DNA from: Sphingomonas endolithica
GTDB taxonomy: Bacteria > Pseudomonadota > Alphaproteobacteria > Sphingomonadales > Sphingomonadaceae
Assembly (NCBI RefSeq): GCF_025231525.1
Contig: NZ_CP103057.1
Location: forward strand, 2,001,001 to 2,065,000
Length of the DNA stretch: 64,000 bases
Direction: 5' to 3'
Every line of letters begins with the position of its first letter. The first letter of the stretch is position 1. This document shows positions 332-16,299 of this stretch, one piece after another. The notes beneath the pieces are model-generated. The model was not told the DNA's origin and ran no database searches. It saw only the letters and a list, made by a program, of their open reading frames with translations. A program made the translations under genes and the position numbers.

Positions 332-884
332 GTCTACTCCCTGCCTCTCACAGCCGCACTTCGCAGGCGCGATGACATGTTGAGATACGGCGCAGTCTGG
401 AAAAGGTTGCACACGTATTAACCGATTTAAGCCGCGGTTCCATTTGGATCGGCTGATCTGACACGGCGCAAGGCGCGAGGACGGAACCCAACCCCGACTG
501 TCGATGGGCACCGACCTTGCCGGAGAGGTCGACGATCAAACGTACTTTAGTGCATGGCATGGGCTGGCCGCGCATCAGCCGCTCGGCTCCGTGAACCGAG
601 CGCGACGTCAGGAATACGAGATGTCGGCCGATCTCCGCGGGCAGTTCAACGGCTGCCCGATGCATGACTCGATCGTGGTGGAAAGCGCCACGCAGAACCG
701 ATCATAACACTTTTTCGTGTGCATTTTCGCGCAACTAATGCGTTTTCTGAACGTATCTATGAAAGCCTCTCAGTTTCCAATCATTTTGCTTCGAAACTCA
801 AGGGCCGGAGAATGCAGATGCCCCTGGTGCGACGGCTCAGGGTGCGCCGATATCGATGATCCGTCGCGCAAAAGGGAGACGGGC
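332..884. other. Intergenic stretch without a recognisable gene
   Basis: This separates the divergent exported-protein gene and the ferritin-like gene, so it should hold both promoters. Short open frames occur on both strands (for example 504-707 plus and 348-665 minus), but they overlap each other, lack convincing ribosome sites and resemble no family I know. The segment around 700-760 is AT-rich and is the most promoter-like part. Confidence 0.4.
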
Positions 885-1889
885 ATGACCGATACGGACC
901 AGCATGTAATCGAGGCCTTCGACAATCGTGTCGAGCGACGCAACGAGCGCCGTGACTTCTTCAAGGCCGCGTTAGGCGCCGCAGCAGTGGCTGGCGCAGG
1001 TGTGGCGGCAGTGACGCTCGCCGGGCCGGCCGTTGCGCAGACCATTACCGATGCTGATGTCCTGAATTTTGCGCTGAACCTCGAATACCTTGAAGCACAG
1101 TTCTATCTGTTCGCGCTGAATGGATCGGGCCTCGCCGCTGCCGATACTGACGGCTACCTGACCGCTGGCACGCTCGTGGCCGGCGGTACTGTAGTCGCAG
1201 GTCAAAAGGTCGACTTTAGCGGCGACGCGGTCGTCGCGTCCTACGCCAAGGAAATCGCGGCGGACGAACTAGCGCATGTTCGTTTTCTGCGTGCGCAGTT
1301 GAACGGCGCTCGCGTGCCGATGCCTAACATCGACGTCAGCCCCGCTGCCTTTAACAAGGCCGCCGTTGCTGCCGGCATCGCCACCGCTGCAGCACCGTTC
1401 AATCCCTATTTGTCACCGGAGAATTTCCTGCTTGGCGCGTTTATTTTCGAAGACGTTGGGGTCACCGCCTACAAAGGCGCCGCCCCGCTGTTGACCAGCA
1501 AGGTTTATCTCGAGGCCGCCGCTGGCATCCTGGCAGTCGAGGCGTATCACGCCTCGATCGTGCGCACGTCGCTATATTCAAAGGGTATCGCCGCCCCGGC
1601 CAAGATGCTGATTGAAGCGACCGAGGCGATTTCGAACTTACGCGACACACTAGATGGCAGTCCGACAGCTGATCTGGTCAAGGGAATTGGCCCGGACGAC
1701 GACCAGGGCGTGGCGAACATTGCGGGTGCCTACGGTGTTGGCTCAAACATCGTGCCGCTCAACTCCAACGGCTTGGCCTTTAGCCGCTCGACCGGGCAAG
1801 TGCTCAATATCGTCTATGGCAACACGACGACGCCGTCCGGCCTGTTTTTCCCCAACGGTGTGAATGGAACATTCAAGGCGAATGCTTGA
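885..1889 (+). CDS. Ferritin-like domain protein, Tat-exported
   Basis: A 334-residue protein of the ferritin-like family typified by Pfam Ferritin_2 (PF13668). I take the ATG at 885 because AGGGAG lies about 7 bases upstream and the Tat-type leader (ERRDFFKAALGAAAVAGAG) then sits near residue 25, ending at AVAQ. The four-helix domain follows: LNFALNLEYLEAQFYLFAL supplies the first Glu-bearing helix, EIAADELAHVRFLR the Glu/His helix, and FIFEDVGVTAYKGAAP and ILAVEAYHASIVRT the second pair. It should fold in the periplasm. The metal-binding or stress role is inferred, because family members are mostly uncharacterised. It is followed 58 bases on by a paralogue with the same core, so a tandem duplication and shared transcription are likely. 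Confidence 0.85.
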   Translation: MTDTDQHVIEAFDNRVERRNERRDFFKAALGAAAVAGAGVAAVTLAGPAVAQTITDADVLNFALNLEYLEAQFYLFALNGSGLAAADTDGYLTAGTLVAGGTVVAGQKVDFSGDAVVASYAKEIAADELAHVRFLRAQLNGARVPMPNIDVSPAAFNKAAVAAGIATAAAPFNPYLSPENFLLGAFIFEDVGVTAYKGAAPLLTSKVYLEAAAGILAVEAYHASIVRTSLYSKGIAAPAKMLIEATEAISNLRDTLDGSPTADLVKGIGPDDDQGVANIAGAYGVGSNIVPLNSNGLAFSRSTGQVLNIVYGNTTTPSGLFFPNGVNGTFKANA

Positions 1890-1947: not shown

Positions 1948-3027
1948 ATGATCGATCAAAACAACGCCATCGACATCTTCGCCGCCGTTGAGAAGCGACG
2001 CGAAGAGCGCCGCCGCTTCATCAAAATCGCTGGCGGCGGTACCGCTGCGATCGGTGGCTTGGCCATGCTGTCCGCATGCGGCAGCGATGACAATAACAAT
2101 CCAGCTCCGACTCCTACACCTACACCAACTGCCTCCCCCTCTCCGACGCCAAGCGCTGCGAACCTAGATCTCGACATCCTGAACTTCGCGCTGAATCTCG
2201 AATATCTCGAGGCGCAATACTACGTCTATGCGGTCAGCGGTGCGGGGCTGCCGGCTTCGATGACGGCAAATGGCGCCGGTACGAGCGCTGGTGGCACGGT
2301 CACGGGCGGAGCAGCGGTCAACTTTTCGGGTGACGCTCTTGTTGCTGCGTACGCCCGCGAGATCGCAGCGGACGAGGCCGCACACGTTACGTTCTTGCGC
2401 CAGGCGATCGGCTCTGCCGCAGTTGCTATGCCCAACATCAACATCAGCCCTGCGGTGTTTGGTGCGCTCGCCACGGCTGCGGGGATCGACCAGACGGCAG
2501 GAGCTTTTAATCCGTATTCTTCACCAGAAGCGTTCCTACTTGGCGCGTTCATTTTCGAGGATGTCGGCGTATCGGCCTACAAGGGCGCGGCCCCGCTAAT
2601 CACCAGTAAGACGTATCTTGAGGCGGCGGCGGGTATCCTTGCGGCCGAGGCATACCATGCCGGCCTGGTTCGCACCGTCCTATACAATAAGGGTATCGCG
2701 GCACCGGTGCTTATCACGAACGCCAACAAGATTTCGGATGCCCGGGACAGTGTCGATGGCACCGCCGTCAGCCCAGCCAATACGCCAGCCACGGCAACCG
2801 TATCAGCTGCTGATGACGATCAGGGGATCACGAATGCCGACGGTTCGGCGAATCTGGTTCCGGCCGACAGCAACGCGATCGCGTACAGCCGCAGCGTTTC
2901 GCAGGTGCTCAACATCGTCTATCTCAACACTGCGGCAAAAACGGCGGGGGCCTCGATGGGAGCGTTCTTCCCCAACGGGCTGAACGCCAATCTCGCAGCG
3001 TTTAAAACCAGCAGCGCAAACGCCTGA
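1948..3027 (+). CDS. Ferritin-like domain lipoprotein, paralogue of the preceding gene
   Basis: A 359-residue paralogue of the upstream ferritin-like protein. The leader (ERRRFIKIAGGGTAAIGG) is Tat-like but ends in LSACG, a lipobox, so the mature protein is probably lipid-anchored at the cysteine. A low-complexity linker of repeated Pro-Thr and Pro-Ser follows, and then the ferritin-like domain with the same landmarks as the first copy: NFALNLEYLEAQYYVYAV, EIAADEAAHVTFLR, FIFEDVGVSAYKGAAP and ILAAEAYHAGLVRT. The two proteins therefore share a core but differ in anchoring. The gene is closed by a strong hairpin about 10 bases after its stop codon. A periplasmic metal or oxidative-stress role is inference. 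Confidence 0.85.
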   Translation: MIDQNNAIDIFAAVEKRREERRRFIKIAGGGTAAIGGLAMLSACGSDDNNNPAPTPTPTPTASPSPTPSAANLDLDILNFALNLEYLEAQYYVYAVSGAGLPASMTANGAGTSAGGTVTGGAAVNFSGDALVAAYAREIAADEAAHVTFLRQAIGSAAVAMPNINISPAVFGALATAAGIDQTAGAFNPYSSPEAFLLGAFIFEDVGVSAYKGAAPLITSKTYLEAAAGILAAEAYHAGLVRTVLYNKGIAAPVLITNANKISDARDSVDGTAVSPANTPATATVSAADDDQGITNADGSANLVPADSNAIAYSRSVSQVLNIVYLNTAAKTAGASMGAFFPNGLNANLAAFKTSSANA

Positions 3028-3037
3028 GATGTTCAAA

Positions 3038-3076
3038 CAAAGACCTGCACGAGTAAGTCCCTCGTGCAGGTCTTTG
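3038..3076 (+). terminator. Hairpin terminator after the ferritin-like pair
   Basis: A perfect 16-bp inverted repeat, CAAAGACCTGCACGAG, with a 7-base loop, lies 10 bases after the stop of the second ferritin-like gene. The 3' arm ends in CTTTG and only a weak T tract follows, but stem length and position fit a transcription terminator. Confidence 0.8.
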
Positions 3077-3128
3077 TAACACTGGCAAATCAGGGATGGC
3101 ACGTCGCGGGTAGCTTAGTGGGGTACTG

Positions 3129-3296
3129 CCAGACTAACCAGATCTGGTTAGTCTGGACGGCGATCGGTGGTAATTTCGGTCCCGCGCCGGCGCCGCAAGG
3201 CGAACATAGACGGGTCCTTGACGGAACAAATCGACTGTAAACTGATCAACTTGCCCCTCTAACCAAATAGGAGATCAGCGGTGTGTTTGGTCTGAG
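3129..3296 (-). repeat. Dispersed repeat B, copy 1, with perfect 28-bp palindrome
   Basis: Read on the minus strand, this starts with a degenerate IS6-like end (CAGACCAAACACACC), continues through a conserved block (CTGATCTCCTATTTGGTTAG, then GGCAAGTTGATCAG) and closes with a perfect palindrome at 3129-3156 whose half is CCAGACTAACCAGA. Three related copies lie near 15958, 52433 and 54292. It contains no reading frame. I interpret it as a solo end of an IS6-like element left by deletion or recombination. The palindrome is complete only here; the other copies keep CTAACCAG and CTGGTT with changes. The rest of 3297-3487 shows nothing but the promoter region of the sigma-factor gene. Confidence 0.65.
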
Positions 3297-3487: not shown

Positions 3488-4096
3488 ATGAAGCCGGTTT
3501 CTCGCCATCGGGCCATTTGGTTGGGCCAGCATATCTTTCCGCATGAGGCGGCGGTTCGCGCTTGGTTATCGCGGCGGGCGCTGACCCATGTGCTCGACAT
3601 CGATGATGTCATACAGGAAAGCTACGCGATCCTCGCGGGCCTCGATCGGGTCGATCATATCTGCACGCCGCGGACCTATTTCTTTCAGGTAGCGAAATCC
3701 GCCGTGCTGCAGGCTCTACGCCGCTCCCGCATGGTCTCGCTCGATGCGCTGGCCGATGCCGACGCCCTGCAGATTCCGTCGAACGATCCGGACCCCGAGC
3801 AGATCGCGGCCGATCGGCAGGAGTTGGGGCGGGTCGAAGCTGTGATCTCGACACTACCCAGCAGGTGTCGCGAGGTTTTCCTGCTCCGCAAGATCCAGGG
3901 CTTGTCACAGCGGGACGTCGCACAAACCCTGGGTTTATCCGAAAGTACGGTAGAGAAGCACGTCATCAAGGCTCTTGGCATCCTTACTCACGCGATTGGG
4001 CGTGGCGGAAAACGAGCCGTTGATGCATCTACTGCGCGTGAACAGAAGAACGACCGCCATGCTCGACACCAATCGCGAGAGCGCGCAATCCATTGA
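3488..4096 (+). CDS. ECF-type RNA polymerase sigma factor (FecI-like)
   Basis: A 202-residue sigma-70 family protein of the extracytoplasmic-function class. Region 2 is visible as DIDDVIQESYAILAGL with TPRTYFFQVAKSAVLQALRR. Region 4 is LPSRCREVFLLRKIQGLSQ followed by a helix-turn-helix, DVAQTLGLSESTVEKHVIKA. Its 3' end overlaps the FecR gene and a TonB receptor follows, the classical FecI-FecR-FecA order, so it probably drives transcription of the receptor operon when the receptor signals through FecR. Region 2.1 begins unusually close to the N-terminus for the length, but no domain is missing. Confidence 0.9.
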   Translation: MKPVSRHRAIWLGQHIFPHEAAVRAWLSRRALTHVLDIDDVIQESYAILAGLDRVDHICTPRTYFFQVAKSAVLQALRRSRMVSLDALADADALQIPSNDPDPEQIAADRQELGRVEAVISTLPSRCREVFLLRKIQGLSQRDVAQTLGLSESTVEKHVIKALGILTHAIGRGGKRAVDASTAREQKNDRHARHQSRERAIH

Positions 4097-5048
4097 GCAG
4101 GCTGCTCTGGTCTGGGCGGCGCGCGTCGATCGTGGATCACTGAACGACCAGGAAGAAGCTGAACTCAACGCTTGGGTGGCCCAAGACACGCGCCGAGCCG
4201 GAGCCTTCGCCCGGGCGATGGCGGCCAACGCGTATCTGGACCGTACCGCCGCGCTGGGTGCGCACTACCAGCCCGCGCGTGTCCCGCTGCTGGCGTCCAT
4301 GGGTCGCCGCCGAATGCTAGCTGCCGCTGGCGGGGCACTGGCAGCGTCAATCGTCGCGGGCGTCTTCGGTCTCCGCCTGCTCCCACACCCAGCGCGTCTT
4401 GCGACGATCAAGGGAGACATCCGTCGCGTGCCGCTGGCGGAGGGATCGGCTGTCACGCTGAATACCGACTCCGCGATCGAACCGCTACTCAGCGCCGAGC
4501 TTCGGCGAGTAAACCTTGTGCGCGGCGAAGCACTCTTCGATGTTGCAAAGGATCCGGCGCGCCCGTTCGTTGTCTATGCTGGTGACACTCGTGTCCGTGC
4601 CGTCGGCACAAGCTTCAACGTGCGCTTACACGAACAAGGCGGCGTGGCCGTTTCGGTACGTGAAGGTATTGTCGAGGTGACGCGAGGAGCGCAGCCGTCC
4701 TTGCGCCTGCGGCGGGGCGAATACGCGCTCTCCGAGGCCGGTCGACCGCTTGCAGCACGTCAGATTCCCGATCAGGAACTCGAGCGATCGATGGCGTGGC
4801 GTGATGGTCGGCTCGATCTGACTGGGATGACGCTCGGCGAGGCCGCGGCCGAGTTCGCACGCTATTCCGACCAGCGCATCATGATTGCCGACCCGGCGGT
4901 AGCCTCTCGGCGAGTAGCTGGCGTCTATTCCACCAGCGACCCCCTTGGCTTCGCGCGCGCCGTAGCGCTCGGCCTCGGGCTTACGGCCTCACAGGAAGAT
5001 GGCGCTGTCCAATTGCGCGCGCCGTTGCCCGGCGAAAAAATCTCGTAG
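4059..5048 (+). CDS. FecR-type anti-sigma/sigma regulator
   Basis: A 329-residue membrane regulator. The N-terminal cytosolic DUF4880-type domain (EQAALVWAARVDRG, WVAQDTRRAGAFARA) contacts the sigma factor. One membrane segment follows near residues 90-110 (GGALAASIVAGVFGLRLL). The periplasmic FecR domain has the landmarks ALFDVAKDPARPFVVYAG and RAVGTSFNVRL, and the C-terminal part (TGMTLGEAAAEFARYSDQRI) would contact the STN domain of the receptor. I take the ATG at 4059, which overlaps the sigma-factor gene by 38 bases. ATGs at 3975 and 4023 are alternatives that lengthen the overlap. The overlap suggests translational coupling of sigma factor and regulator. Confidence 0.88.
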   Translation: MLDTNRESAQSIEQAALVWAARVDRGSLNDQEEAELNAWVAQDTRRAGAFARAMAANAYLDRTAALGAHYQPARVPLLASMGRRRMLAAAGGALAASIVAGVFGLRLLPHPARLATIKGDIRRVPLAEGSAVTLNTDSAIEPLLSAELRRVNLVRGEALFDVAKDPARPFVVYAGDTRVRAVGTSFNVRLHEQGGVAVSVREGIVEVTRGAQPSLRLRRGEYALSEAGRPLAARQIPDQELERSMAWRDGRLDLTGMTLGEAAAEFARYSDQRIMIADPAVASRRVAGVYSTSDPLGFARAVALGLGLTASQEDGAVQLRAPLPGEKIS

Positions 5049-5129
5049 GGTGATAGAGGAACTTCGACCGAACTGCATCTAGGTGGTGAATGCGGCGCGG
5101 GGCGCCGTGCGTTCCGGGGGTCGAAGATC

Positions 5130-8102
5130 ATGAATGCCAAGTTGTTGCTGGGCTGCGGCGTTGCCGCGGCCGCTCTTCTGTCGCCTGCGTCGGCCAGCGC
5201 GCAGCAGGTGTCGTTCAACATTCCGGCGGGGCCGCTGCCTTCCGCCATCGCGGCGTTCGGCCGGCAGTCCGGCCTGCAGATCATCGCACCAGCCGACGGC
5301 ATGGGCGGCGTCCGCAGCAACATGGTGCGCGGTCGCATGGACGCCGGCACCGCAGTCCGCCGCTTGATCGCGGGCACTGGCCTTGCGATCGCCTCGGAAA
5401 GCGGAGGCCAGATCGTCCTGCGCCAGGTAACGCGTCCTGCAGCACCGAAGCCAGCGGCCTCGCAGACGACGTCGCGGACGTCGAGTGAGGCGCAAACCGG
5501 AGCCGGAGACGACATCGTCGTCACAGGCCTGCGCGCCAGCCTTCAGACGGCGCGCGAGATCAAACGCAACTCCGACGCCGTCGTAGACGCCGTGGCGGCC
5601 GAGGATCTAAACCAGCTGCCGGATAATAGCGCAACGGAAGCGCTCGCCCGCCTGCCCGGCGTGCAGGTTTTGCGGTTTCGCGGTGAGGCGCAAGGCTTCA
5701 CCGTGCGCGGATTGTCGCAGGTGTTGACCACCGTGAATGGTCAGGAAGCCTATTACGGCACCTCCCGGCAGAGCCTGCTCAACAGCTATCCCGCCAGCTT
5801 GATCGCGTCCGCCGAGGTGTACAAGGCACTGACCCCGGATCTCATCGAGGGCGGCCTTGGCGGCGCGGTGAACATCAACTTTCGTCGCCCGCTGGACTAC
5901 AAACGCGGCCTCACCGTCGCCGGCACGTTGCGTGGCACCACCGAGGACCAGGACCACAAATTCTACTACAACGGCGATGTGCTGCTGAACGGCCGTTGGG
6001 ACACCGGCATCGGCGAACTCGGTGTGCTTGTGAATGCGTCTTACATGCGCCGTGATTATCTCGAATCCTATCGGCAGAACCTGAGTCCCACCGCGACCAC
6101 TGTTGCCCCTGCCTCTCCGGCAGGGCTGGCCAAGGGGCTCATTATCCCGGTGGGGATGCTCATCCGGCACAATGAGGGCAATTACCGGCGCCCGGTTCTT
6201 ACAGCAGCGGCGCAGTGGCGGCCGGCGCCGAATTTCGATGTCGATGCCCGTGTCACGCATGTCATCGACAAGAACGAATATACCGACAACTACCTCGCGA
6301 CATCGCTCATGGCCCAGACGGTGCTTTCGGACGTCGTGTTGGTGCCTGACACGAACATCGTGAAAAGCGCGACCTTCACGCCGTCGAATGCGCGCGGCCC
6401 TTACTCATCACATACCAAGCTCGATATCAAAACGACGCAGGTCGATATTGGCGCCGCCTGGCGCACCGGCATCGCGAAGCTTAGCACGCGCGCGGTGTAC
6501 ACGACGTCCGTGAACGACACCTATGCTCAGAACGTGCAGCTTGCCTTCAGGACGGCACCAAGGGTTCGCGCAGACTTCCAGAGCGATGCGCAATATGGTG
6601 GGCTCGCCTATCAATACCTCGGCGTCGATCTGGAAGATCCGGCGAATTTCTATCTGGCGTCCTATGCCGACGGAGTTACCCGCAACAAGGGCGGCGGCCT
6701 GCAATGGCGGACTGACCTCGAACTGACCCCCGATGCGGGCTTCTTCAGCAACATCAAAGCCGGCTTTCGCTATGCAGATCGCTCCGCGCATTTTCGCTCG
6801 GGTTCGCGGACGGCGGCGTTCCCGACCACGGCAGCGGCTCGGCTGCCGCTGTCGGCGATCCCCGGCGGCGATGCGCTTAAGCTAGTCGCCTCCGGGTTCG
6901 GCGGAGACAATGCGGACGTGCCCTCCAGCTGGATCGGTTATGACGGTAGCCTGCTTGGTCGCAGCACCACCACCGAAGCGCTGAACCGCTACCTGACGAC
7001 GTCTTTCCCGCTTTTCGCCACGCAGAACCCGGCGATCAATCCCATCCAGACCTTTGACGGGAAGGAAACCAGCTACGCCGCCTATGGCCAGTTCAAGTAT
7101 AACCTGTCGCTGGCGAGCATCCCCGTCGATGGCGTGATCGGCGCACGCATCGTCAACACTCAACTGGCGATCGACGGCACACGGGGTCGGACCACGCGGC
7201 TAAATCCCGCGCCCGCGAACCCCATCGTCTACGAACCGATCCACAGCCGACAGAACTATTTGGATTTCGATCCGTCGGCGAGCGCGGTGGCGCATTTCGC
7301 GGACAACGTGCAGATGCGGCTGACCTGGACCAAGACGTTCTCGCGCCCCGACTTCTCCCAGCTCAATCCTAGCACCACGCTGACCGAAGCGAAGAACGGC
7401 GACGCCTATGTGGGATTTGCCACAAAGGGAAATCCCGACCTTCAGCCGGTGCGGTCGCAGAACTGGGATGCCTCGTTGGAATGGTATTTCGGTCGGGCGG
7501 GTGCGCTGAGCGTGGCTGGCTTCAAGCGAGACATCGATGGCTTCATCGTCAGCACGCAGGAAAGGCAGGATCTGGAGGGGGCGCTGGGCGCGGTTGACGT
7601 CACTCAGCCCATCAATGCCGGAAAAGGAACGGTGAAGGGGGTAGAGATCAGCGGGAGCACGTTCTTCGATTTTGCGCCCGGCATCCTTCGCAATTTCGGC
7701 GTGTCGGCGAACTTCACCTACGCGGACAGCCATCAGGTCCTGCCGACGACGAAGACCAACGTTGGGACGGAGGGCCCGATCGCCGGTGTGTCAAAGACGA
7801 GCTTCAACGCAGCGGCCTTCTACGACGATAGCCGGCTACGTATCCGTATCGCCTATGCCAAGCGTAGCAAGTTCCTGCTCGCCTACAACACGGCAAGCCG
7901 GCCATATGACCAATATTACTATCCAATCGAGCGTCTCGACTTTTCGGTCGGATACAAGATCATGCCTGGAACGTCGATCACGATAGACGGCACCAACCTG
8001 CTGAACATGCCCCAGCACGGTTATTACGGCACACCGCAGTTTGTCGACCGCGTCTACTACGAAGGGCGCACCTTCTCCGCCGCGCTACGCTTCGCTTTTT
8101 GA
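5130..8102 (+). CDS. TonB-dependent receptor with STN signalling domain
   Basis: A 990-residue outer-membrane receptor. A signal peptide covers about residues 1-24 (cleavage SASAQQ). An STN domain at about 26-98 (VSFNIPAGPLPSAIAAFGRQ) signals to FecR. A TonB-box-like DDIVVTG precedes the plug (SATEALARLPGVQV, FTVRGLSQVLTTVNG, GGLGGAVNINFRRPL), followed by a long barrel ending in the usual aromatic terminus, ALRFAF. Sequence style matches the large sphingomonad/Caulobacter/Xanthomonas TonB family linked to plant-polymer uptake rather than a siderophore receptor; that is inference. It sits 81 bases after fecR and 21 bases before the phosphodiesterase gene, so it is part of the same transcription unit. 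The substrate is unknown, but the downstream hydrolases suggest a carbohydrate or ester-decorated glycan. Confidence 0.92.
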   Translation: MNAKLLLGCGVAAAALLSPASASAQQVSFNIPAGPLPSAIAAFGRQSGLQIIAPADGMGGVRSNMVRGRMDAGTAVRRLIAGTGLAIASESGGQIVLRQVTRPAAPKPAASQTTSRTSSEAQTGAGDDIVVTGLRASLQTAREIKRNSDAVVDAVAAEDLNQLPDNSATEALARLPGVQVLRFRGEAQGFTVRGLSQVLTTVNGQEAYYGTSRQSLLNSYPASLIASAEVYKALTPDLIEGGLGGAVNINFRRPLDYKRGLTVAGTLRGTTEDQDHKFYYNGDVLLNGRWDTGIGELGVLVNASYMRRDYLESYRQNLSPTATTVAPASPAGLAKGLIIPVGMLIRHNEGNYRRPVLTAAAQWRPAPNFDVDARVTHVIDKNEYTDNYLATSLMAQTVLSDVVLVPDTNIVKSATFTPSNARGPYSSHTKLDIKTTQVDIGAAWRTGIAKLSTRAVYTTSVNDTYAQNVQLAFRTAPRVRADFQSDAQYGGLAYQYLGVDLEDPANFYLASYADGVTRNKGGGLQWRTDLELTPDAGFFSNIKAGFRYADRSAHFRSGSRTAAFPTTAAARLPLSAIPGGDALKLVASGFGGDNADVPSSWIGYDGSLLGRSTTTEALNRYLTTSFPLFATQNPAINPIQTFDGKETSYAAYGQFKYNLSLASIPVDGVIGARIVNTQLAIDGTRGRTTRLNPAPANPIVYEPIHSRQNYLDFDPSASAVAHFADNVQMRLTWTKTFSRPDFSQLNPSTTLTEAKNGDAYVGFATKGNPDLQPVRSQNWDASLEWYFGRAGALSVAGFKRDIDGFIVSTQERQDLEGALGAVDVTQPINAGKGTVKGVEISGSTFFDFAPGILRNFGVSANFTYADSHQVLPTTKTNVGTEGPIAGVSKTSFNAAAFYDDSRLRIRIAYAKRSKFLLAYNTASRPYDQYYYPIERLDFSVGYKIMPGTSITIDGTNLLNMPQHGYYGTPQFVDRVYYEGRTFSAALRFAF

Positions 8103-8123
8103 GCTGACTAGAGAGGCTTTGGC

Positions 8124-9077
8124 ATGTTTCGAGAGCGATCCTGGCTGCTGTGCGGCGTCCTCTGCTTCGGGCTGTTGGATCCGGCGGCTGCCGCAGCCCA
8201 GTCAGCGCGTAAGCGACTTTCGGTCGATAACCGGCAGTTTGTCGTCGTCGCTCACCGTGGTTGCCACAACGCGGCACCGGTACACGGCCTGCCGGCCACG
8301 CCCGAGAACTCGCTTGCCGGGCTTGAGAACTGCATCCGGCTTGGCGTCGATATGGCGGAAGTAGACGTACGGCGCACGTCCGACGGCGAACTGGTGATGC
8401 TGCACGACGAAACCTTGGACCGGACCACCACTGGACAAGGCTATGTGTCGGCGACATCGCTCGCCAAGCTGCGGACGCTGCGGCTGCGCGACAATCTGGG
8501 CGGCCGCAACGTAGCGCAGACGGAACATGGTATCCCGACACTGGGGGAGATGTTGCGAGCAGCGCACGGGCGCATCCTGCTCAACCTCGACATCAAAGAC
8601 GGTATCTATACCGAAGTGGTGGATGCCGTGCGCCGTGCCGGCATGCAGGACCAGGTGGTAGTGAAGAACGTCGCCGGCCCCACCACCCCGGCGCTGGCCG
8701 GCTTAGCGCCCTATGATCTCGTGCCGTTCGGCGTGATCCTGACGAATGCCGACACAAGCGCTGATCTACCAGCTATCCTGTCTCGGCAGATCAATGGCGC
8801 AAAACCGGTCGCCATCGAACTGCCGTCGATGCGTCCGGAACAGCTGCCTGCCGTTACGGCGATGGCCAAGCGTGGGCGCGTGCCGCTTTGGGTCAATACC
8901 TTGTGGTCTGGCTTCATCCAGGGCTGGGGCGGCGACAAGGCCGCCTTGCGCGACCCTCAAGCCGTGTGGGGCCGAATGGCCGAGGCCGGCATCACCATCT
9001 TTCAGACCGACGAGCCGGAGGCACTGCTCGCATGGCGCGCCAGTCGCGTTGCTCAGCAAAAGGAAGCGCGCCAGTGA
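8124..9077 (+). CDS. Glycerophosphodiester phosphodiesterase family protein
   Basis: A 317-residue exported GDPD-family enzyme. A signal peptide ends near residue 30 (AAAAQSA). The family signature VVAHRGCHNAAP with TPENSLAGLENCIRLG gives the catalytic His-Arg and the Glu. AEVDVRRTSDGELVMLHDE follows with the metal-binding Glu-x-Asp and second catalytic His, then TLDRTTTGQGYV. The C-terminal FQTDEPEALLAW is the usual family ending. It would cleave a phosphodiester in the periplasm. In carbohydrate loci GDPD-like proteins may act on substrates other than glycerophosphodiesters, so the exact substrate is open. Its TGA overlaps the GTG start of the next gene, which implies coupling. Confidence 0.88.
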   Translation: MFRERSWLLCGVLCFGLLDPAAAAAQSARKRLSVDNRQFVVVAHRGCHNAAPVHGLPATPENSLAGLENCIRLGVDMAEVDVRRTSDGELVMLHDETLDRTTTGQGYVSATSLAKLRTLRLRDNLGGRNVAQTEHGIPTLGEMLRAAHGRILLNLDIKDGIYTEVVDAVRRAGMQDQVVVKNVAGPTTPALAGLAPYDLVPFGVILTNADTSADLPAILSRQINGAKPVAIELPSMRPEQLPAVTAMAKRGRVPLWVNTLWSGFIQGWGGDKAALRDPQAVWGRMAEAGITIFQTDEPEALLAWRASRVAQQKEARQ

Positions 9078-11695
9078 CCGATCCGCTCTCGCGTCGGACC
9101 TTCATCAAGTCCGCCGGCGCAGTTGCCACCGGGCTGTCCGTTGCTCCGGTTGCCGCTGAAAACTTCAACTCGTCGGAGCCCCGGCCACCCGCCAGCGCGA
9201 TCGGTCGTCGTATCGCCCTGTCGGATCTACACTACACGGATCCGGTCACGCGGAGCGAGGAAGGCATACCCATCGGCAACGGCCGCATGGGCAGTCTGGT
9301 CTGGACGACACCGTCGCGGTTGCGCCTGCAGATCAACCGGGTCGACGTCTACCCCAGCAACAGGGCGTCCAACAGCTTCTTCGAGCCACACAACGATTAT
9401 TGCGGCGGCTGCGCCTTTCTGGACATTGCCTTCGACGGGCAGCCGTTCGCCAGCCCGAAGCAGCACCTGTCAGTTTACGACGGCGTGATGACGATCGAAG
9501 GTGAAGGCATCACTGTTCGCATCGTGCCGAGCCGTACCCACGATGTGTTCGCTATCGCGATCAACGACCGTCGCGCCCACCCGGCACGCGTCTCGGCGGT
9601 GCTGCGCATGCTGCGCTATGAATCCAAATATCTTGGCGCCCAAAGCGAGACGGATGCGGTCTGCCAAGCCAGCACCGTGCAGACGCGCAATCATCGTGCG
9701 ACATCGACCCGCCACGCAATGCCGGGGCGCATCGCGCTGACCCAGGATTTCAGTGAGGCTGGTCATAGCTGCCGCTCCGCCGTCGGGCTTACGTTTGACG
9801 ACGTGGGTGCAGCGAGCGAGTTGATCGACGAAACAGGCGTATCGCTCACCACTACGCGTACCGGCGCCATAACGCTTTTCGTTGGCTCGTCCGCCAGCTT
9901 TGATCCCAAGGCGGATGTACTCGCCACGACGTGGAGTGCCGTACAGGCCGTGCGGACACAGGGGTTCGCCGCTGTCGCGGCCGAAACACAGGGTTGGTGG
10001 CACCGCTTCTGGGATCAGGGCTCGATCGAACTGCGCAGTGCCGATGGCCGCGCCGAACGTGCCCAGGCCGGCTATCACTACTTCCTCTACCTGATGGCGT
10101 CCTCCTCCTGTGGTGGCCCATACCCGCCCAAGTTCAACGGTATGCTGTGGAATACTGGCGGGGATGTGCGCGCCTGGGGCGCGCAGCATTGGTTCACCAA
10201 TCTCAGCTGTTACTACGAAACGATGCCAGGTACCGGCCGGTTCGAGCTGATGGAGCCAATGTTCGCGATGTACTCGGCGATGTTCGACTCCTGCGCCACC
10301 GCTGCGAAGCAACAATGGGGATCGCAGGGCATCTTCATCCCCGAGACCGTCTACTTCGACGGCCTCGAACCGCTACCCCCGACAATTGCGGCCGAGCTTC
10401 AGGACCTCTATCTCGAGCGCCAGCCGTGGTCGGAGCGATCCAAGGCGTTCCTCGATTATGGCGCCACCAAGCACGCCCATTCCAGCGTATGGAACTGGAA
10501 GGCGACGGGCCAGTGGAAGGACGGGGTCTATGTGGTGCCCGAGCGCGGCGACGGCTGCTACGGCCCGACCAGCCACATCTTCGCGGCAACCGCCAAGGTC
10601 GCCTACCTCTTCTGGCAGAAGTATGAATTCACGCTCGACCGCGACTGGCTGGAGAAGCGCGCCTATCCGATGCTGCGCGGCGCGGTGGAATTTTATCGTC
10701 ACCATCCGCGCATGCAGAAGGGCGCGGACGGCCGCTACCATCTGAGCGGCGCCAACAACAGCGAGCCCGTGCGTGGTGCGCGCGACACCAATGAAGACAT
10801 GTTCGCGATCCGCGGAGTCTTGGGCGCGCTGCTCCGCGCGTCGCAACTGCTGGGATCGGACACGGGGATGCGGGCCACTTGGCGCGAGTTCCTCGATCAT
10901 CTCGCGCCGTTGCCGCTGACGACTGATTCCGACGCGCTCGGTCGCAAGGAAGCGCCCGGCCCCGCGACCTTCGCTGCGGCGCGGACGCCAGTGGTGAAAG
11001 CAAACCCCGTTTTCCTGCGTCCCGACGTTAACAGCCTGCCGAGTTGGTTCTTCGACACGTGCGGCGTGGAGGCCGCCGACGGCGTCGTGCGCGACATCGG
11101 ACAGGCGACGTTCGATGCTTTGGTCACGGCGGATGGGCCGAAGCCCGGCGCGTCCCCTGGGGTTCTGTCGAAGCTCGGCATCGCGGCCGCCACGCTCGGA
11201 CGTGCGCAAGCGGTCGCTATCCTGGTACCCAACCAGATGGAGCCTAGGGCTTTCCCACAGTCGCGCACCTACAAGAACGGCGCGGCCCTGCGAAACCGGA
11301 TGAGCATGATGGAGGGCGCGCAGGCGCTCGCAGCGGAGCATCTCGGCCGCGCGTCGCAGGCGCTCCAGATGGCGCTGCTCCAAAGCAACCCGCCGGCACC
11401 CGGAGAGGATCCGGTGCTCCACCTCGTTCCTGCTCTGCCGAGGGGCTGGGACGCTAGTTTCAAACTGGCGGCACGCGGGGGCTTCGTCGTCGAGGCGACA
11501 ATCGCGGGCGGCAAGATCGATGCTCTCGCCATCCTGTCACAGGCGGGAGCGCGCTGCACGTTGCGCAATCCGTTCGACGCTCCGGCCGTCGTGCGACGCG
11601 CGGGCCGCCCGGATGTGCGCATGGCAGGCGACTATCTCCGTTTCGACACCAACAAAGGCGAGCGGGTTCGCATCGCACGTGCCTCCCAGGAGTAA
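9074..11695 (+). CDS. Large exported GH95/DUF5703-like glycoside hydrolase
   Basis: An 873-residue exported protein. I take the GTG at 9074, which overlaps the preceding TGA, because the Tat leader (SRRTFIKSAGAVATG) follows immediately; an open frame from 8888 is only an extension. The start of the mature protein (GIPIGNGRMGSLVWTTPSRL, then LQINRVDVYPSN) matches the N-terminal beta-sandwich region of GH95/DUF5703-type proteins. The middle (PPKFNGMLWNTGG, GCYGPTSHIFAATAKVAYLF, YPMLRGAVEFYRHHP) looks like an alpha/alpha-toroid catalytic domain, and NNSEPVRGARDTNEDMFAIR resembles its active-site segment. The fold assignment is by motif resemblance; the glycan is unknown and GH95 fucosidase activity should not be assumed. 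It lies in the TonB-receptor operon between a phosphodiesterase and two esterase-type enzymes. Confidence 0.75.
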   Translation: MTDPLSRRTFIKSAGAVATGLSVAPVAAENFNSSEPRPPASAIGRRIALSDLHYTDPVTRSEEGIPIGNGRMGSLVWTTPSRLRLQINRVDVYPSNRASNSFFEPHNDYCGGCAFLDIAFDGQPFASPKQHLSVYDGVMTIEGEGITVRIVPSRTHDVFAIAINDRRAHPARVSAVLRMLRYESKYLGAQSETDAVCQASTVQTRNHRATSTRHAMPGRIALTQDFSEAGHSCRSAVGLTFDDVGAASELIDETGVSLTTTRTGAITLFVGSSASFDPKADVLATTWSAVQAVRTQGFAAVAAETQGWWHRFWDQGSIELRSADGRAERAQAGYHYFLYLMASSSCGGPYPPKFNGMLWNTGGDVRAWGAQHWFTNLSCYYETMPGTGRFELMEPMFAMYSAMFDSCATAAKQQWGSQGIFIPETVYFDGLEPLPPTIAAELQDLYLERQPWSERSKAFLDYGATKHAHSSVWNWKATGQWKDGVYVVPERGDGCYGPTSHIFAATAKVAYLFWQKYEFTLDRDWLEKRAYPMLRGAVEFYRHHPRMQKGADGRYHLSGANNSEPVRGARDTNEDMFAIRGVLGALLRASQLLGSDTGMRATWREFLDHLAPLPLTTDSDALGRKEAPGPATFAAARTPVVKANPVFLRPDVNSLPSWFFDTCGVEAADGVVRDIGQATFDALVTADGPKPGASPGVLSKLGIAAATLGRAQAVAILVPNQMEPRAFPQSRTYKNGAALRNRMSMMEGAQALAAEHLGRASQALQMALLQSNPPAPGEDPVLHLVPALPRGWDASFKLAARGGFVVEATIAGGKIDALAILSQAGARCTLRNPFDAPAVVRRAGRPDVRMAGDYLRFDTNKGERVRIARASQE

Positions 11696-11699
11696 CCCG

Positions 11700-12749
11700 A
11701 TGAAGTTTGTTTCTTCCGCCATGCTGGGGGCGTCGCTAGCAACCCTGCTGACCCCCATGGTGTGCGCCGCGCAGAGCCTGCCCACACGCAGCATCCCCGC
11801 GCATGATCTGCCCGTGCCCACCACGGCCAGCCCGGCGATGCAGAAGGTAATCTCTCTGTCCGGCCCGTCCAAGGCGCCAGCGAGCGTGCCGACCACCAAC
11901 GAAGGGTGGAACAAGCGATCGAACCCCAACCCCGCTAAAAAACACCAGACGGTCGAGATGCTTCTCGCGCGCTACAAGCTTGCGATGCGGGAGGAGACGA
12001 TAGCCGGGGTTCACTGCTACGTCCTGACCCCCACAGATGCTCCGAAAACCAACCATGGACGGGTGCTCGTCCATTTCCACGGCGGCGGCTACACCTCTGG
12101 TGCGGGCGAGGCGGCAGTCGGCGAAGCGATCTTCGTCGCCGGTGCCACGCGTATGAAAACGATCGCGGTCGATTACCGCATGGCGCCGGACTTCCCCTAT
12201 CCGGTGCCGGTGGACGACGCGATCGCCGTGTGGAAAGCGGTCAGCGCGAAGATGCCTGCGAACAAGCTCGGCATGTTCGGCACCTCGGCCGGCGGCAGCC
12301 TGGTGCTTTCGGCAGTGCAGCGCGCGATCACCGAGCGGCTGCCTGTCCCTGGCGCGATCATGGCGGGAACTCCCTGGTCGGATTTGTCCGAAACCGGAGA
12401 CAGCTATTTCCTCAACCGGTATGTCGATCCGATGGTGTATCAGGACGGCCTGAGCATCTCGGCCGCGCAGTACGCGCACGGCATCGACCTCAAGGATCCG
12501 CGGGTCTCGCCGATCTACGGCTCGTTCACCGGCTTCCCGCCCACGTTGCTACTCACCGGAACCCGCGACCTGTTCCTGTCGAACACGATCCGTGTGGATC
12601 GCAAGTTGCGCGATGCGGGCCGTCATAGCGAACTGATCGTCTACGAAGGGCTGAGCCACGGCCGCTACATCGCAGGTCCCGATTTCGAAGAGACCAAGAC
12701 GGCGCTGAAGGACATCGCGACCTTCTTCAACAGCAATCTCGCCAAGTGA
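11700..12749 (+). CDS. Exported alpha/beta hydrolase, HSL-type esterase
   Basis: A 349-residue alpha/beta hydrolase of the hormone-sensitive-lipase group. The start at 11700 lies 4 bases after the preceding stop, has AGGAG upstream, and gives a signal peptide ending at CAAQS. The oxyanion motif HGGG occurs in VHFHGGGYTSG, the nucleophile Ser in MFGTSAGGSLVLS, the acid is the Asp of LLTGTRDLF, and the His is in YEGLSHGRY. DYRMAPDFPYPVPVDDA is the usual cap-adjacent segment. Its place in the operon suggests that it removes ester decorations from the imported or surface-bound substrate; that is inference. The long frame extending upstream to 11520 lies inside the previous gene and is not used. 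Confidence 0.88.
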   Translation: MKFVSSAMLGASLATLLTPMVCAAQSLPTRSIPAHDLPVPTTASPAMQKVISLSGPSKAPASVPTTNEGWNKRSNPNPAKKHQTVEMLLARYKLAMREETIAGVHCYVLTPTDAPKTNHGRVLVHFHGGGYTSGAGEAAVGEAIFVAGATRMKTIAVDYRMAPDFPYPVPVDDAIAVWKAVSAKMPANKLGMFGTSAGGSLVLSAVQRAITERLPVPGAIMAGTPWSDLSETGDSYFLNRYVDPMVYQDGLSISAAQYAHGIDLKDPRVSPIYGSFTGFPPTLLLTGTRDLFLSNTIRVDRKLRDAGRHSELIVYEGLSHGRYIAGPDFEETKTALKDIATFFNSNLAK

Positions 12750-12763
12750 TCGGAGCAACAAGC

Positions 12764-13957
12764 ATGAAGAAAATTCGGTTCGCATTAGCGGCGATCGGTA
12801 TGGCGCTTGCCGCTGCCGGCCCCGCGGCGGCGCAGCATTGGACGCGGAGTTGGGAAGTGGCGATGCAGTCGGCGCCGCGGTCGCTCGCCCGTGCTCACCC
12901 GCAGTTTAAGGACCACACGCTGCGCCAGATCGTGCGGCTCAGCATTGGTGGCGATCATCTTCGCTTACGCTTCTCCAACGAGCTTACGCCGACGCCGACC
13001 CGGCTTGGCGTGGTCCGCATCGCGAAAGTAGATGAGCGGGGCACGATCGTGCCTGGCACGGAGCGGGTGGTTTATTTCTCTGGTCAGGGGGGTGCGACGA
13101 TGCCGGCGAACGGCACGGTACTCGGCGATGCGATCGATATGAAGACCGCACCGTTCGATCGGGTCGCCGTCAGCATCTATTTCCCAGATGAAATCGCCGC
13201 ACCGACATATCACGATTATGCCAATGCCACGCACTGGATCGCCCCCGGCGATCAAACGGCGGCGGCAAAGCTGCGCGATCCCAGCTTGTTCATCTCGATG
13301 GCCGTCCTCGCCGGAATTGATGTCGAAAATGGCAAGCCTGTCAGGACCATCGTTGCGTTTGGCGATTCGATAACTGACGGGGCTCACGCCACGCTGAACC
13401 TCGACCGACGCTGGCCCGATCTGCTCGCCCGGCGCCTGCAGCAGAACAAGCGAAATATCGGCGTTGCCAATGCCGGGATTGGCGGCAATCAACTACTGCG
13501 CGACGGCGGAGCGCTAAGCGGAGTCAATCGCTTTGAGCGTGATGCCCTGAACGTTCCGGGCGTCAGCCATGTCATCGTGCTGGAAGGTGTCAATGATCTA
13601 GGCATCGCTGCCTATGCCAAGCTCCCATTGCCCACGTCTGAGCAGATGATCGCGGGCTATCGCCAGATGATTGCGGCTGGTCATGCCCGCGGGGTCAAGG
13701 TCATCCTGGCAACGATCACGCCGTACAAGGGCGCGCGCTACTGGAGCGAAGATGGCGAGAAGGTGCGGCAGGCGGTGAACGGCTGGATCCGCGAGAACAA
13801 GGAGGCGGACGGGTTCGTCGATTTCGACAAATCGGTCTCCGACCCGGCCAACCCCCAGGCCATTGCCAAGCAGTTCAACGGTACCGATAAACTTCACCCG
13901 AACGACCAAGGCTTCTTGGCCATGGCGAACGCGATCAACCTGAACCTATTCCGCTAA
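12764..13957 (+). CDS. SGNH/GDSL-family esterase
   Basis: A 397-residue exported SGNH hydrolase. A signal peptide covers the first 24 or so residues (MKKIRFALAAIGM to AAAQ). An N-terminal beta-rich domain of about 170 residues precedes the catalytic domain. Block I is IVAFGDSITDGAHAT, block II NAGIGGNQLLRDGG, block III VLEGVNDLG, and block V DKLHPNDQGF, so Ser, Gly, Asn, Asp and His are all present. I use the ATG at 12764 because it begins the signal peptide; an upstream in-frame ATG at 12746 overlaps the previous gene's stop. It is the last gene of the receptor operon and probably deacylates the same substrate as its neighbour. Close relatives include putative acetyl-esterases of carbohydrate loci. 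Confidence 0.88.
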   Translation: MKKIRFALAAIGMALAAAGPAAAQHWTRSWEVAMQSAPRSLARAHPQFKDHTLRQIVRLSIGGDHLRLRFSNELTPTPTRLGVVRIAKVDERGTIVPGTERVVYFSGQGGATMPANGTVLGDAIDMKTAPFDRVAVSIYFPDEIAAPTYHDYANATHWIAPGDQTAAAKLRDPSLFISMAVLAGIDVENGKPVRTIVAFGDSITDGAHATLNLDRRWPDLLARRLQQNKRNIGVANAGIGGNQLLRDGGALSGVNRFERDALNVPGVSHVIVLEGVNDLGIAAYAKLPLPTSEQMIAGYRQMIAAGHARGVKVILATITPYKGARYWSEDGEKVRQAVNGWIRENKEADGFVDFDKSVSDPANPQAIAKQFNGTDKLHPNDQGFLAMANAINLNLFR

Positions 13958-14749: not shown

Positions 14750-15853
14750 TCAAGCCCCCTGCACTATCGCCTCTTCGGCGTCACCTGGCGTATCTTCCCC
14801 GGCCCGCTCCGGCACGATCCGATCGAGCAGCCGAGACAAGCCGACAACAAACGGCAACGCGATTAACGCACCAGCGACGTTAAAGAGCACATGCGCGTTG
14901 GCGATGCGCTGTCCAGTGTCGGTCGCGGTCGCCGCGCCGAACTTGGCGAGTTGATCGATCAGGAGAACGCCGAACGCGACAGAGACCACGTTGAAGCCGA
15001 GATGAAAGATCCCTGCCTTGACGGCAGACCGAGAACGTCCGACCGTTGCAATCAGCGTGTCGGCGCAGGTGCCAATCTCGGCGCCCAGCATGATCGCCAC
15101 GCCCGCGGGCAGCGTGATCAATCCGCCCCCGGCCAAGGTAATGACGATGCCCATCATCGCGGACGACGACTGGATGGCAATCGTCAGAAGCGCACCTGCA
15201 GCGACGCCGAGCAAAGGATTCTCCAGCTGCTTCAGGTGCGCGATGATCTCGGGATGGTCCTGAAGAGGCTCGGCCGCGGTGCCAATGATGTTGAGCCCGA
15301 ACAGCACCAGCCCCAGCCCCAGCAGGATGTCGGCCCGCTGCTTTGCCTTGTCCGACTTACCCAGAACTTTCCACAGCAGACCGGCCGCGATGGCGACAGG
15401 CGCATAAATGTCGATATTCCAGGCAAAGACCTGGCTCGAGAACGTCGTGCCGATATTGGCGCCAAGAATCGCTGGCAGGGCATTGGCGAATGGCATCAGG
15501 CCTGCATCGATGATCGTGATAAGGAGGATGATCACCACCGATGAGGAATCTAGCACCACCGTGGCGGCAGTGCCGCTGGCCAAAGCCGCGAAGCGGTTCG
15601 AGGAACATCGTTTCAGCAGCGCCTGAAAGCGTCCGCCCTGGGCCTGCTTCAGGCTCTCAGCAAGGATGCCGACCCCGTACATGAACAGCGCGAGCCCGCC
15701 GATCGCGCCCATGGCCAATGCAACCCAGTCGATCGATGTGGACGCCTGATGCTGCTGCGCGCTCGCGTGGGGCACCCCCAGTAGCATCGCCGCCATTATA
15801 GCGGCGGAGAACACAGCCGCGCGGGACGAAACGAAGTCATAAGCCTTGCTCAT
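14750..15853 (-). CDS. Na/Pi cotransporter family protein
   Basis: A 367-residue inner-membrane protein of the Na+/Pi cotransporter family (PF02690; NptA/YjbB group). After an apparent signal or first membrane segment (ending ASAQQ) come two repeats of the family. Repeat one has GGLALFMYGVGILAESLKQA and TAATVVLDSSSVVIILL, and repeat two has GALLTIAIQSSSAMMGIVI with MLGAEIGTCADTLIA. The paired QSSS/DSSS motifs are the substrate-binding signature. The C-terminal PhoU-like domain of longer family members is absent. Transport of phosphate is expected from the family, but related proteins may move other anions. It is co-oriented with the small exported protein that follows. Confidence 0.88.
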   Translation of the reverse strand: MSKAYDFVSSRAAVFSAAIMAAMLLGVPHASAQQHQASTSIDWVALAMGAIGGLALFMYGVGILAESLKQAQGGRFQALLKRCSSNRFAALASGTAATVVLDSSSVVIILLITIIDAGLMPFANALPAILGANIGTTFSSQVFAWNIDIYAPVAIAAGLLWKVLGKSDKAKQRADILLGLGLVLFGLNIIGTAAEPLQDHPEIIAHLKQLENPLLGVAAGALLTIAIQSSSAMMGIVITLAGGGLITLPAGVAIMLGAEIGTCADTLIATVGRSRSAVKAGIFHLGFNVVSVAFGVLLIDQLAKFGAATATDTGQRIANAHVLFNVAGALIALPFVVGLSRLLDRIVPERAGEDTPGDAEEAIVQGA

Positions 15854-15957: not shown

Positions 15958-16299
15958 GGGCATTGTCAAACCCAATGCACCACTGATTTCCCATTTGGTT
16001 AGGACAGCAAGTTGATCACCGTCGCTATCACTTTGTTCAGGGCAAGATCCGCCTATGTTCTCGCTGTGCTTCCAGGTCGGGATGAGATCCCGACGGTGTT
16101 GTCAGAGCAACCGCACCAGCCGAAACGCAGGCGAGTTTTACCCCCGATTGCTTGCCCTTCGGCAGGCAATCGTACGCACATCCGGGAACAAGCCGAAGGA
16201 GTCCGCAGCACTGACAGCCAGTTCAGAGTAGGACCGAGGTCTAAAGCTACCGTTAGCAACCCCACCATTCTCGCCTGGTGCATTTGGTCTGACAGTGCC
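15958..16299. mobile_element. Short composite element with IS6-like terminal inverted repeats
   Basis: The left end (GGGCATTGTCAAACCCAATG at 15958) and the right end (GGTGCATTTGGTCTGACAGT, to 16299) are imperfect inverted repeats of the IS6-type end seen elsewhere in this window. Inside are a copy of dispersed repeat B (about 15958-16095) and of repeat A (16100-16235). There is no transposase gene of its own; the minus-strand frame through it is the tail of the neighbouring transposase frame. It abuts the transposase gene at the codon for the residue after VHANVHN. It could be a non-autonomous element or two solo ends brought together by deletions. Confidence 0.55.
16100..16235 (+). repeat. 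Dispersed repeat A, copy 1
   Basis: It begins TGTCAGAGCAACCGCACCAG, resembling an IS6-like end, and includes a stem-loop at 16146-16171 (GATTGCTTGCC, loop CTTC, one G-T pair in the 3' arm) followed by the conserved CACATCCGGGAACAAGCCGA and GCAGCACTGAC. Related copies start at 20557 and 54155. No protein is encoded. Confidence 0.65.

What the first reader, a model, noticed from the sequence alone, without database searches (positions are those of the whole stretch)
3488..13957. Candidate outer-membrane signalling and degradation locus of unknown substrate
Seven co-directional genes with short gaps or overlaps encode an ECF sigma factor, FecR, an STN-type TonB receptor, a GDPD-family phosphodiesterase, a large GH95/DUF5703-like protein, an HSL esterase and an SGNH esterase, all the enzymes with export signals. 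The mix of phosphodiester, glycosyl and ester cleavage next to a self-regulated receptor suggests uptake of a decorated glycan or glycolipid that standard polysaccharide-utilisation schemes do not name.
Basis: partly seen in the sequence, partly recalled or inferred. Interest (0 to 1): 0.75.

Follow-up and report, generated by a model that had tools for sequence, protein, structure and literature searches.

The report
Receptor operon for a phosphodiester-bearing glycan
A soil-type bacterium carries a self-switching outer-membrane receptor operon whose close relatives come with an esterase and a phosphate-ester-cutting enzyme, which suggests that they feed on a sugar-containing molecule held together by phosphate and decorated with esters; the substrate itself is still unknown.

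Summary
Seven co-directional genes (3488-13957) encode an ECF sigma factor, FecR, a TonB-dependent receptor, GDPD, a GH95-like protein, an HSL-type hydrolase and an SGNH esterase; successive gaps from the receptor on are 21, -4, 4 and 14 bp. The >50%-identity receptor clade has 7 loci in 6 of 295 genus genomes. All 7 carry an SGNH esterase and a phosphoesterase (four families pooled); 0 of 18 loci of next-nearest receptors carry any tested enzyme partner. Two sets alternate: GDPD + GH95-like (2 loci) or S1/P1 nuclease (5 loci, 3 with GH92, one of these broken). The GH95-like gene is rare (2 of 295 genus genomes) and sits in an Acidobacteriaceae-containing clade whose four named loci also carry SGNH, GDPD or PF04185 phosphoesterase; 0 of the other 75 loci do. 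The GDPD belongs to a separate sphingomonad lineage, so the pairing probably arose more than once. HSL is not conserved. The GH95-like protein is neither canonical GH95 nor GH139: the acid Glu and base Asn are kept, other signature residues are lost. Best reading: ligand-sensed uptake of an esterified, phosphodiester-bearing glycoconjugate. Substrate not identified. New variant of a known kind.

The parts
3129..3156 (.). 28-bp perfect palindrome, single copy in the genome (up to 3 mismatches), 331 bp upstream of the sigma gene; possible operator
   Evidence: no function shown
3488..4096 (+). ECF sigma factor (FecI-like)
   Evidence: TIGR02937, PF08281; 60% identical homologue beside the receptor in G1043 and G1118
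4059..5048 (+). FecR anti-sigma/sigma regulator
   Evidence: PF04773; 49-51% identical homologue beside the receptor in G1118 and G1043
5130..8102 (+). TonB-dependent receptor with N-terminal STN signalling domain
   Evidence: PF00593, PF07715, TIGR01782; STN weak; 7-locus clade above 50% identity
8124..9077 (+). exported GDPD with DUF4996
   Evidence: PF03009, PF16387; best solved relative 3i10; sphingomonad GDPD lineage
9074..11695 (+). GH95/GH139-like exo-glycosidase candidate (DUF5703 N-terminus), Tat-type leader
   Evidence: PF22124, PF18961, PF21307; Glu564 and Asn376 conserved; trees
11700..12749 (+). HSL-type alpha/beta hydrolase (esterase), exported; not conserved in the other receptor loci
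   Evidence: PF07859, NF058649 below cut-off; no relative in 6 of 6 other receptor loci
12764..13957 (+). two-domain SGNH esterase with GDSI serine motif, exported
   Evidence: PF13472; 9kr0 E 7e-79, 7tog E 3e-68; relative present in 7 of 7 receptor-clade loci

Best explanation
This is a ligand-sensed outer-membrane acquisition operon for a glycoconjugate that contains a phosphodiester, exo-linked sugar(s) of the type that GH95/GH139 enzymes remove (L-fucose, 2-O-methyl-L-fucose, L-galactose) and O-acyl or O-acetyl esters. Proposed working: exported SGNH (with HSL here) strips esters; the GH95-like enzyme removes the terminal sugar by an inverting mechanism (acid Glu564, Asn376 as water-activating residue); GDPD opens the phosphodiester; the receptor imports a fragment of the molecule; occupancy is read by its STN domain through FecR to release the sigma factor, which raises expression of the receptor-enzyme transcript. 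Shown: gene order, domains, conserved residues and recurrent co-location. Inferred: export, order of cleavage, regulation, and that one molecule carries all three bonds. The receptor clade appears to be paired with interchangeable enzyme sets, each with a phosphoesterase and, in 5 of 7 loci (one broken), an exo-glycosidase, and with a constant SGNH esterase.
For: SGNH and a phosphoesterase in 7 of 7 receptor-clade loci, against 0 of 18 control loci of the next-nearest receptors for SGNH, GDPD, PF04185, S1/P1, GH92, GH95L, HSL and His_Phos. GDPD + GH95L and S1/P1 (+GH92) sets do not overlap among the 7 loci. GH95L with SGNH/GDPD/PF04185 in 4 of 4 named loci of the supported 18-row GH95L clade and 0 of the other 75 loci, all 79 placed in the tree. 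GH95L and GDPD have different histories (GH95L 50-54% to those Acidobacteriaceae, GDPD 31-35%, but GDPD 49-64% to other Sphingomonas GDPDs), so the pairing was probably assembled more than once. GDPD-DUF4996 has a TBDR directly upstream in 13 of 13 loci fetched for it out of 31 non-own places. Distant GH95L relatives sit beside GH29 fucosidases and SASA acetylesterases. GH139/GH95 mechanism: PMC12282258 (abstract and passages read).
Against: No substrate, transcript or activity data. HSL is not conserved and sigma/FecR are missing from 2 of 7 loci. Phosphoesterase type varies (GDPD, PF04185, S1/P1, histidine phosphatase), which could mean different substrates or phosphorus scavenging. S1/P1 is named for nucleases; in G1118 and G1043 it is on the strand opposite to the receptor, in G056 upstream on the opposite strand. 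Many GH95L genes, including near ones (L033, L035, L036, L037, L039), have no SGNH, GDPD or PF04185 partner in the flanks held. SGNHs of this family also lie beside other, more distant TonB receptors (G083, G075 and G013 coordinates), so SGNH alone is not specific. In G1089 an MFS and a ROK gene separate receptor and GDPD. No inner-membrane sugar transporter in the operon.
Confidence: 0.5

Rival explanations
1. Glycophospholipid catabolism: SGNH and HSL are (lyso)phospholipases or lipases, GDPD cleaves the deacylated glycerophosphodiester, and the glycosidase (GH95L here, GH92 elsewhere) trims sugars from the head group, as with phosphatidylinositol mannosides or inositol phosphosphingolipids.
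For: Fits the constant pair of ester hydrolase and phosphoesterase with a variable glycosidase, the PF04185 partner in G1089, L031 and L032, and GH92 with S1/P1 in the sister set.
Against: The SGNH's characterised relatives are two-domain carbohydrate acetylesterases (7tog, 7toj), not lipases (its nearest structure, 9kr0, is of unstated function); distant GH95L relatives sit in plant-glycan-like loci.
Confidence: 0.2
2. Plant or algal polysaccharide locus: GH95L plus acetylesterases debranch an acetylated fucosylated glycan; GDPD is a separate phosphorus-scavenging gene that shares the operon.
For: GH95/GH139 activities are fucosidases; Bacteroidota GH95L loci carry GH29, GH88 and SASA; SGNH related to acetylxylan esterases; Na/Pi cotransporter next door.
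Against: GDPD and/or another phosphoesterase recurs with GH95L in three of the four Acidobacteriaceae loci, with GDPDs of a different lineage, and phosphoesterases are in 7 of 7 receptor loci; no endo-acting polysaccharide enzyme is among the seven genes.
Confidence: 0.25
3. Bacterial wall polymer (teichoic-acid-like): GDPD acts as a GlpQ-type teichoicase, SGNH/HSL remove D-alanyl or acetyl esters and GH95L removes the sugar substituent.
For: Teichoic acids carry exactly phosphodiester, glycosyl and ester bonds (recalled); GDPD-fold enzymes include teichoicases such as GlpQ (recalled); no call supports it directly.
Against: The best solved GDPD relative is 3i10 (126 bits); the entry that I recall as GlpQ, 5t91, scores 42.5 bits. 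GH92 and S1/P1 in the sister set do not fit.
Confidence: 0.05

Closest known systems
Carbohydrate-utilisation loci with TonB-dependent receptors in Proteobacteria (CUT/PUL-type; name recalled)
   Same: TonB receptor clustered with exported exo-glycosidase and esterases; sister loci G1089 C3 and G056 add MFS sugar transporters and ROK regulators
   Different: no endo-acting enzyme and no sugar transporter here; a phosphoesterase is constant
FecIRA-type cell-surface signalling (ECF sigma, FecR, STN receptor)
   Same: three adjacent genes in canonical order
   Different: receptor of the TIGR01782 group, followed by degradative enzymes; FecI and FecR equivalog cut-offs not reached
GH95 (AfcA-type alpha-L-fucosidase/L-galactosidase)
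   Same: three-part Pfam architecture, acid Glu and the Asn equivalent to N423
   Different: NIN signature replaced by W(F/Y)xNxSC; the C-terminal NLF..FQIDGNFG stretch (IDGNFG recalled) replaced by NRMxLxEGxQA
GH139 (2-O-methyl-L-fucosidase; 9hyq, 9hmb)
   Same: DUF5703 N-domain, acid Glu and base Asn aligned
   Different: Gln411 absent; weak similarity only (30-32 bits by single sequence; 66-84 bits by profile)
FjoAcXE/PbeAcXE acetylxylan esterases (7tog)
   Same: two-domain SGNH protein aligned over nearly the full length
   Different: GDSI instead of GNSI; Arg139 and Arg193 of the MeGlcA/xylose site replaced by Asn and Ala

Membership tests
FecIRA-type cell-surface signalling | ECF sigma, FecR and STN-domain TonB receptor genes adjacent | tested here: met
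   STN matches model positions 1-51 of 52 but is under the Pfam cut-off
FecIRA-type cell-surface signalling | ligand-dependent induction of receptor genes | not testable with these tools
   needs expression data
GH95 | general acid Glu (AfcA E566) | tested here: met
   Glu564 aligned and conserved: invariant in 24 rows, and 16 of 16 clade rows plus over 97% of 59 others
GH95 | Asn pair N421/N423 (NIN) and activating Asp766 | tested here: not met
   only the N423 equivalent (Asn376) is kept, in 31 of 31 GH95-like rows; residue 375 is T, V, A or I in the 24 close rows; Glu747 may replace Asp766 but the local alignment is uncertain. The 10 canonical rows compared were picked by the NIN motif, and 6 of them are cut before the Asp766 region. 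Residue roles from PMC12282258
GH139 | Gln411-Asn412 pair and acid Glu561 | tested here: not met
   Asn and Glu met, Gln not met
GH139 | 2-O-methyl-L-fucosidase activity | not testable with these tools
   no assay
FjoAcXE-like acetylxylan esterase | GNSI serine motif; Arg139 and Arg193 in the ligand site | tested here: not met
   GDSI; Asn and Ala at those columns (alignment, roles)
GDPD | PF03009 domain above cut-off | tested here: met
   80.3 bits, cut-off 23.6
Sus-type PUL | SusC/SusD pair | tested here: not met
   TonB receptor present; no SusD-like domain among the seven genes scanned
Proteobacterial TonB carbohydrate locus | inner-membrane sugar transporter and sugar-sensing regulator in the cluster | tested here: not met
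   no such domain in the seven genes; present in sister loci L187 and L170

The most novel reading that the evidence does not exclude
A family of receptor operons dedicated to phosphodiester-linked glycoconjugates (for example fungal phosphogalactomannan, glycosylinositol phospholipids or a bacterial phosphoglycan), in which one receptor clade is combined with interchangeable phosphodiesterase-plus-exo-glycosidase sets and a constant esterase, and in which the GH95/GH139-like enzyme founds a new glycosidase family with its own specificity.
Probability: 0.3. Interest if true: 0.75.

Novelty: new variant of a known kind. Interest (0 to 1): 0.5.

Why it matters
Glycan-uptake loci are mostly catalogued by their glycosidases. 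Here the phosphoesterase and the esterase are the parts that travel with the receptor, while the glycosidase changes. If the shared-substrate idea is right, it opens a class of phosphorylated glycoconjugates as bacterial food and gives a concrete set of enzymes (an uncharacterised GH95/GH139 relative, GDPD-DUF4996 and an SGNH esterase) to assay together.

Tried and rejected
Canonical GH95 or GH139 membership for the large enzyme: rejected on signature residues. FjoAcXE-type xylan esterase: rejected on the serine motif and ligand residues. Phosphate-starvation control of the operon: a PHO-box-like pattern (up to 3 mismatches) gave 5 hits in the window against 3.45 expected, none before this operon; one lies 22 bp upstream of the neighbouring Na/Pi gene. 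Sigma-70 promoter scan: nothing useful, 1 found against 3.1 expected. Foreign composition: operon genes are 60.1-65.7% GC against 62.3% for the window, so composition shows no island. Viral contigs: no relative (close relatives only). Plasmids: 7 records, none sphingomonad; two are 38-39% identical over 93-95% of the query (Haladaptatus, Paenibacillus), the rest 23-25%. Literature: DUF5703, DUF5703 with glycoside hydrolase, DUF4996, and glycosyl inositol phosphorylceramide with TonB-dependent returned 0 papers; three mixed searches (4, 5 and 15 of 37 papers listed) showed nothing on such a locus, judged by titles and abstract starts only. The crystal-code searches led to the two papers that I opened. 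No claim of absence from print goes beyond those searches.
Full report
Observation. The seven genes are present as described. Refined starts, chosen by reading: FecR 4059, GH95-like 9074 (GTG, overlapping the GDPD stop by 4 bp), HSL 11700, SGNH 12764. Spacings are -38, 81, 21, -4, 4 and 14 bp. A perfect inverted repeat at 3037-3077 follows the upstream ferritin-like gene, and the next genes downstream of 13957 run the other way, so the unit looks bounded. Export of the four enzymes rests on reading their N-termini, which look Sec-like for three and Tat-like for GH95L.

Distribution. A full-length GH95-like match is rare among relatives. At E <= 1e-30 it was found only in the own genome among 397 family and 385 class genomes (samples drawn evenly, sharing some genomes) and in 2 of 295 genus genomes; these searches scored only the best two or three candidates of each genome. 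Among 150 relatives, 18 matched at E <= 0.001, but apart from the own genome the matches were partial (at most 117 residues, best E 1.6e-15). A third named strain, MMS24-J13, has it at 55%; its context was not available.

Receptor clade. In 295 genus genomes, 7 receptors in 6 genomes match the window receptor at E <= 1e-170, the window's own included; the other six are 52-56% identical (two best candidates scored per genome, so a lower bound). The next-nearest receptors are at most 39% identical (best E 2.2e-160). Layouts: window: sigma-FecR-receptor-GDPD-GH95L-HSL-SGNH. G1089 C3: receptor-MFS_2-ROK-GDPD-GH95L-PF04185-SGNH. G1089 C2: sigma-FecR-receptor-SGNH-S1/P1-GH92. G970: sigma-FecR-receptor-SGNH-S1/P1, then GH92 fragments. 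G1118 and G1043: sigma (60%)-FecR (49-51%)-receptor-SGNH, then S1/P1 on the opposite strand (in G1043 a 200-residue match). G056: S1/P1 upstream on the opposite strand, receptor-His_Phos_2-GH92-SGNH-ROK-sugar transporter. Counts: SGNH 7 of 7; a phosphoesterase of one of four families 7 of 7; sigma and FecR 5 of 7; GDPD 2 of 7; GH95L 2 of 7; S1/P1 5 of 7; GH92 3 of 7 (one fragmentary); HSL 1 of 7. The GDPD/GH95L and S1/P1 sets do not overlap in these 7.

Control. The loci of 18 of the next-nearest receptors (from; about 8.5 kb on each side, shorter at contig ends) were fetched and searched with the same queries and with profiles: 0 of 18 have SGNH, GDPD, PF04185, S1/P1, GH92, GH95L, HSL or His_Phos relatives; 7 have ROK relatives, 10 sugar-transporter relatives and 1 a sigma relative. 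7 of 7 against 0 of 18 is a chance of about 2e-6 (by hand) if loci were independent, which they are not fully, since the 7 receptors are relatives. The queries were taken from the receptor-clade loci themselves, which favours them. SGNHs of this family do occur beside some other, more distant receptors (e.g. G083, G075, G013).

GH95-like clade. 79 loci from named genomes were retrieved. With window SGNH and GDPD as queries, only L031, L032, L034 and L063, all Acidobacteriaceae, have a relative nearby; profiles give the same four and add PF04185 in L031 and L032 (those profiles include sequences from some of these loci, the queries do not). L034 has SGNH only. L063 also has a purple-acid-phosphatase-type metallophosphoesterase next to GH95L. 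In a tree of all 79 loci and 24 database proteins, the window protein sits in an 18-row clade (support 100, quick method) that holds exactly these four loci plus the Sphingomonas rows P0001, P0008 and P0054, P0011/P0019 (the same proteins as L031/L032) and other database rows; the Acidobacteriota relatives L033, L035, L036, L037, L039, L056 and L099 lie outside and lack the partners (with 58 loci gave the same clade). Flanks vary from none on one side to 10 kb (shortest locus 3.3 kb), so absences are not all equal. Farther relatives lie beside GH29 fucosidases, SASA acetylesterases, GH88, GH97 or DUF5696 proteins; 20 proteins were scanned, 19 of them neighbours of distant GH95L genes, chosen by hand from the 130 neighbours listed. 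In 4 of 79 loci GH92 is near.

Different histories. The window GDPD groups with sphingomonad GDPDs (49-64% identity to those of Sphingomonas) and away from the acidobacterial ones (31-35%), while GH95L is 50-54% identical to the same acidobacterial loci. Unequal rates are possible, but the simplest reading is that GH95L came by horizontal transfer and was paired with a local GDPD, so the GDPD/GH95L association was assembled more than once. In 13 of 13 GDPD-DUF4996 loci fetched for this purpose (of 31 non-own places) a TonB receptor lies directly upstream (one, L183, is only a barrel fragment); in G1089 an MFS and a ROK gene lie between. ROK regulators lie close in about 8 of 13 by reading, 3 of them confirmed by Pfam.

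Enzyme chemistry. GH139 and GH95 are described as inverting, with an acid Glu and an unusual Asn base (PMC12282258, abstract and passages read). GH95L keeps the Glu (564) and an Asn (376; 31 of 31 GH95-like rows), lacks Gln411 and the NIN motif, and has a conserved Glu747 in an NRMxLxEGxQA motif near where GH95 has Asp766; the IDGNFG motif of GH95 is recalled, one search shows only its NLF..FQI start in 4 of 10 canonical rows. It is best called an uncharacterised relative of GH95 and GH139. The SGNH resembles FjoAcXE-like acetylxylan esterases (PMC9105624, passages read) but has GDSI for GNSI and lacks two of the arginines that bind the MeGlcA-xylose ligand. GDPD is closest to 3i10, named only as a putative GDPD.

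Mechanism. I favour a ligand-sensed operon that dismantles and imports an esterified glycoconjugate with a phosphodiester. The presence of all three bond types in one molecule is inferred from recurrence of the genes, not shown. Glycophospholipids and acetylated plant glycans remain serious rivals. No structure prediction was possible.

Noticed in passing
window 14750-15853 (-): Na/Pi cotransporter (PF02690) next to the operon on the opposite strand, with a PHO-box-like sequence (3 mismatches) 22 bp upstream of its start; fits phosphate recovery but the motif count in the window is at chance level.
   Followed up: partly
window 16138-16923 (-): IS6-type transposase (PF13610); a similar-looking transposase, by reading, lies beside the S1/P1 gene of G1118 (L197 12261-12932).
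   Followed up: no
window 3129-3156: Perfect 28-bp palindrome before the sigma gene, unique in the genome with up to 3 mismatches; its 20-bp core is absent from the 217 other loci, the two with it covering this same place.
   Followed up: partly
window 717-1889 and 1948-3027: Two tandem ferritin-like (PF13668) proteins just upstream of the operon.
   Followed up: no
window 16996-20412 (-): Large PD40 beta-propeller plus amidohydrolase protein.
   Followed up: no
L195 11396-12074 (G970): GH92 found only as two fragments next to S1/P1, suggesting decay of the alternative enzyme set.
   Followed up: no
L173 and L176, downstream of GDPD: Genes that by reading look like phosphonate-pathway enzymes (phosphoenolpyruvate-mutase-like, nucleotidyltransferase-like) near the receptor-GDPD pair.
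   Followed up: no
L054, L057, L060, L067: GH92 near GH95-like genes in four of 79 loci, all titled as Bacteroidota groups, echoing the GH92/GH95L alternation in the receptor clade.
   Followed up: no
L090 4769-18037: Bryobacterales contig with five consecutive genes that match the GH95-like query, behind a TonB-receptor-like gene.
   Followed up: no
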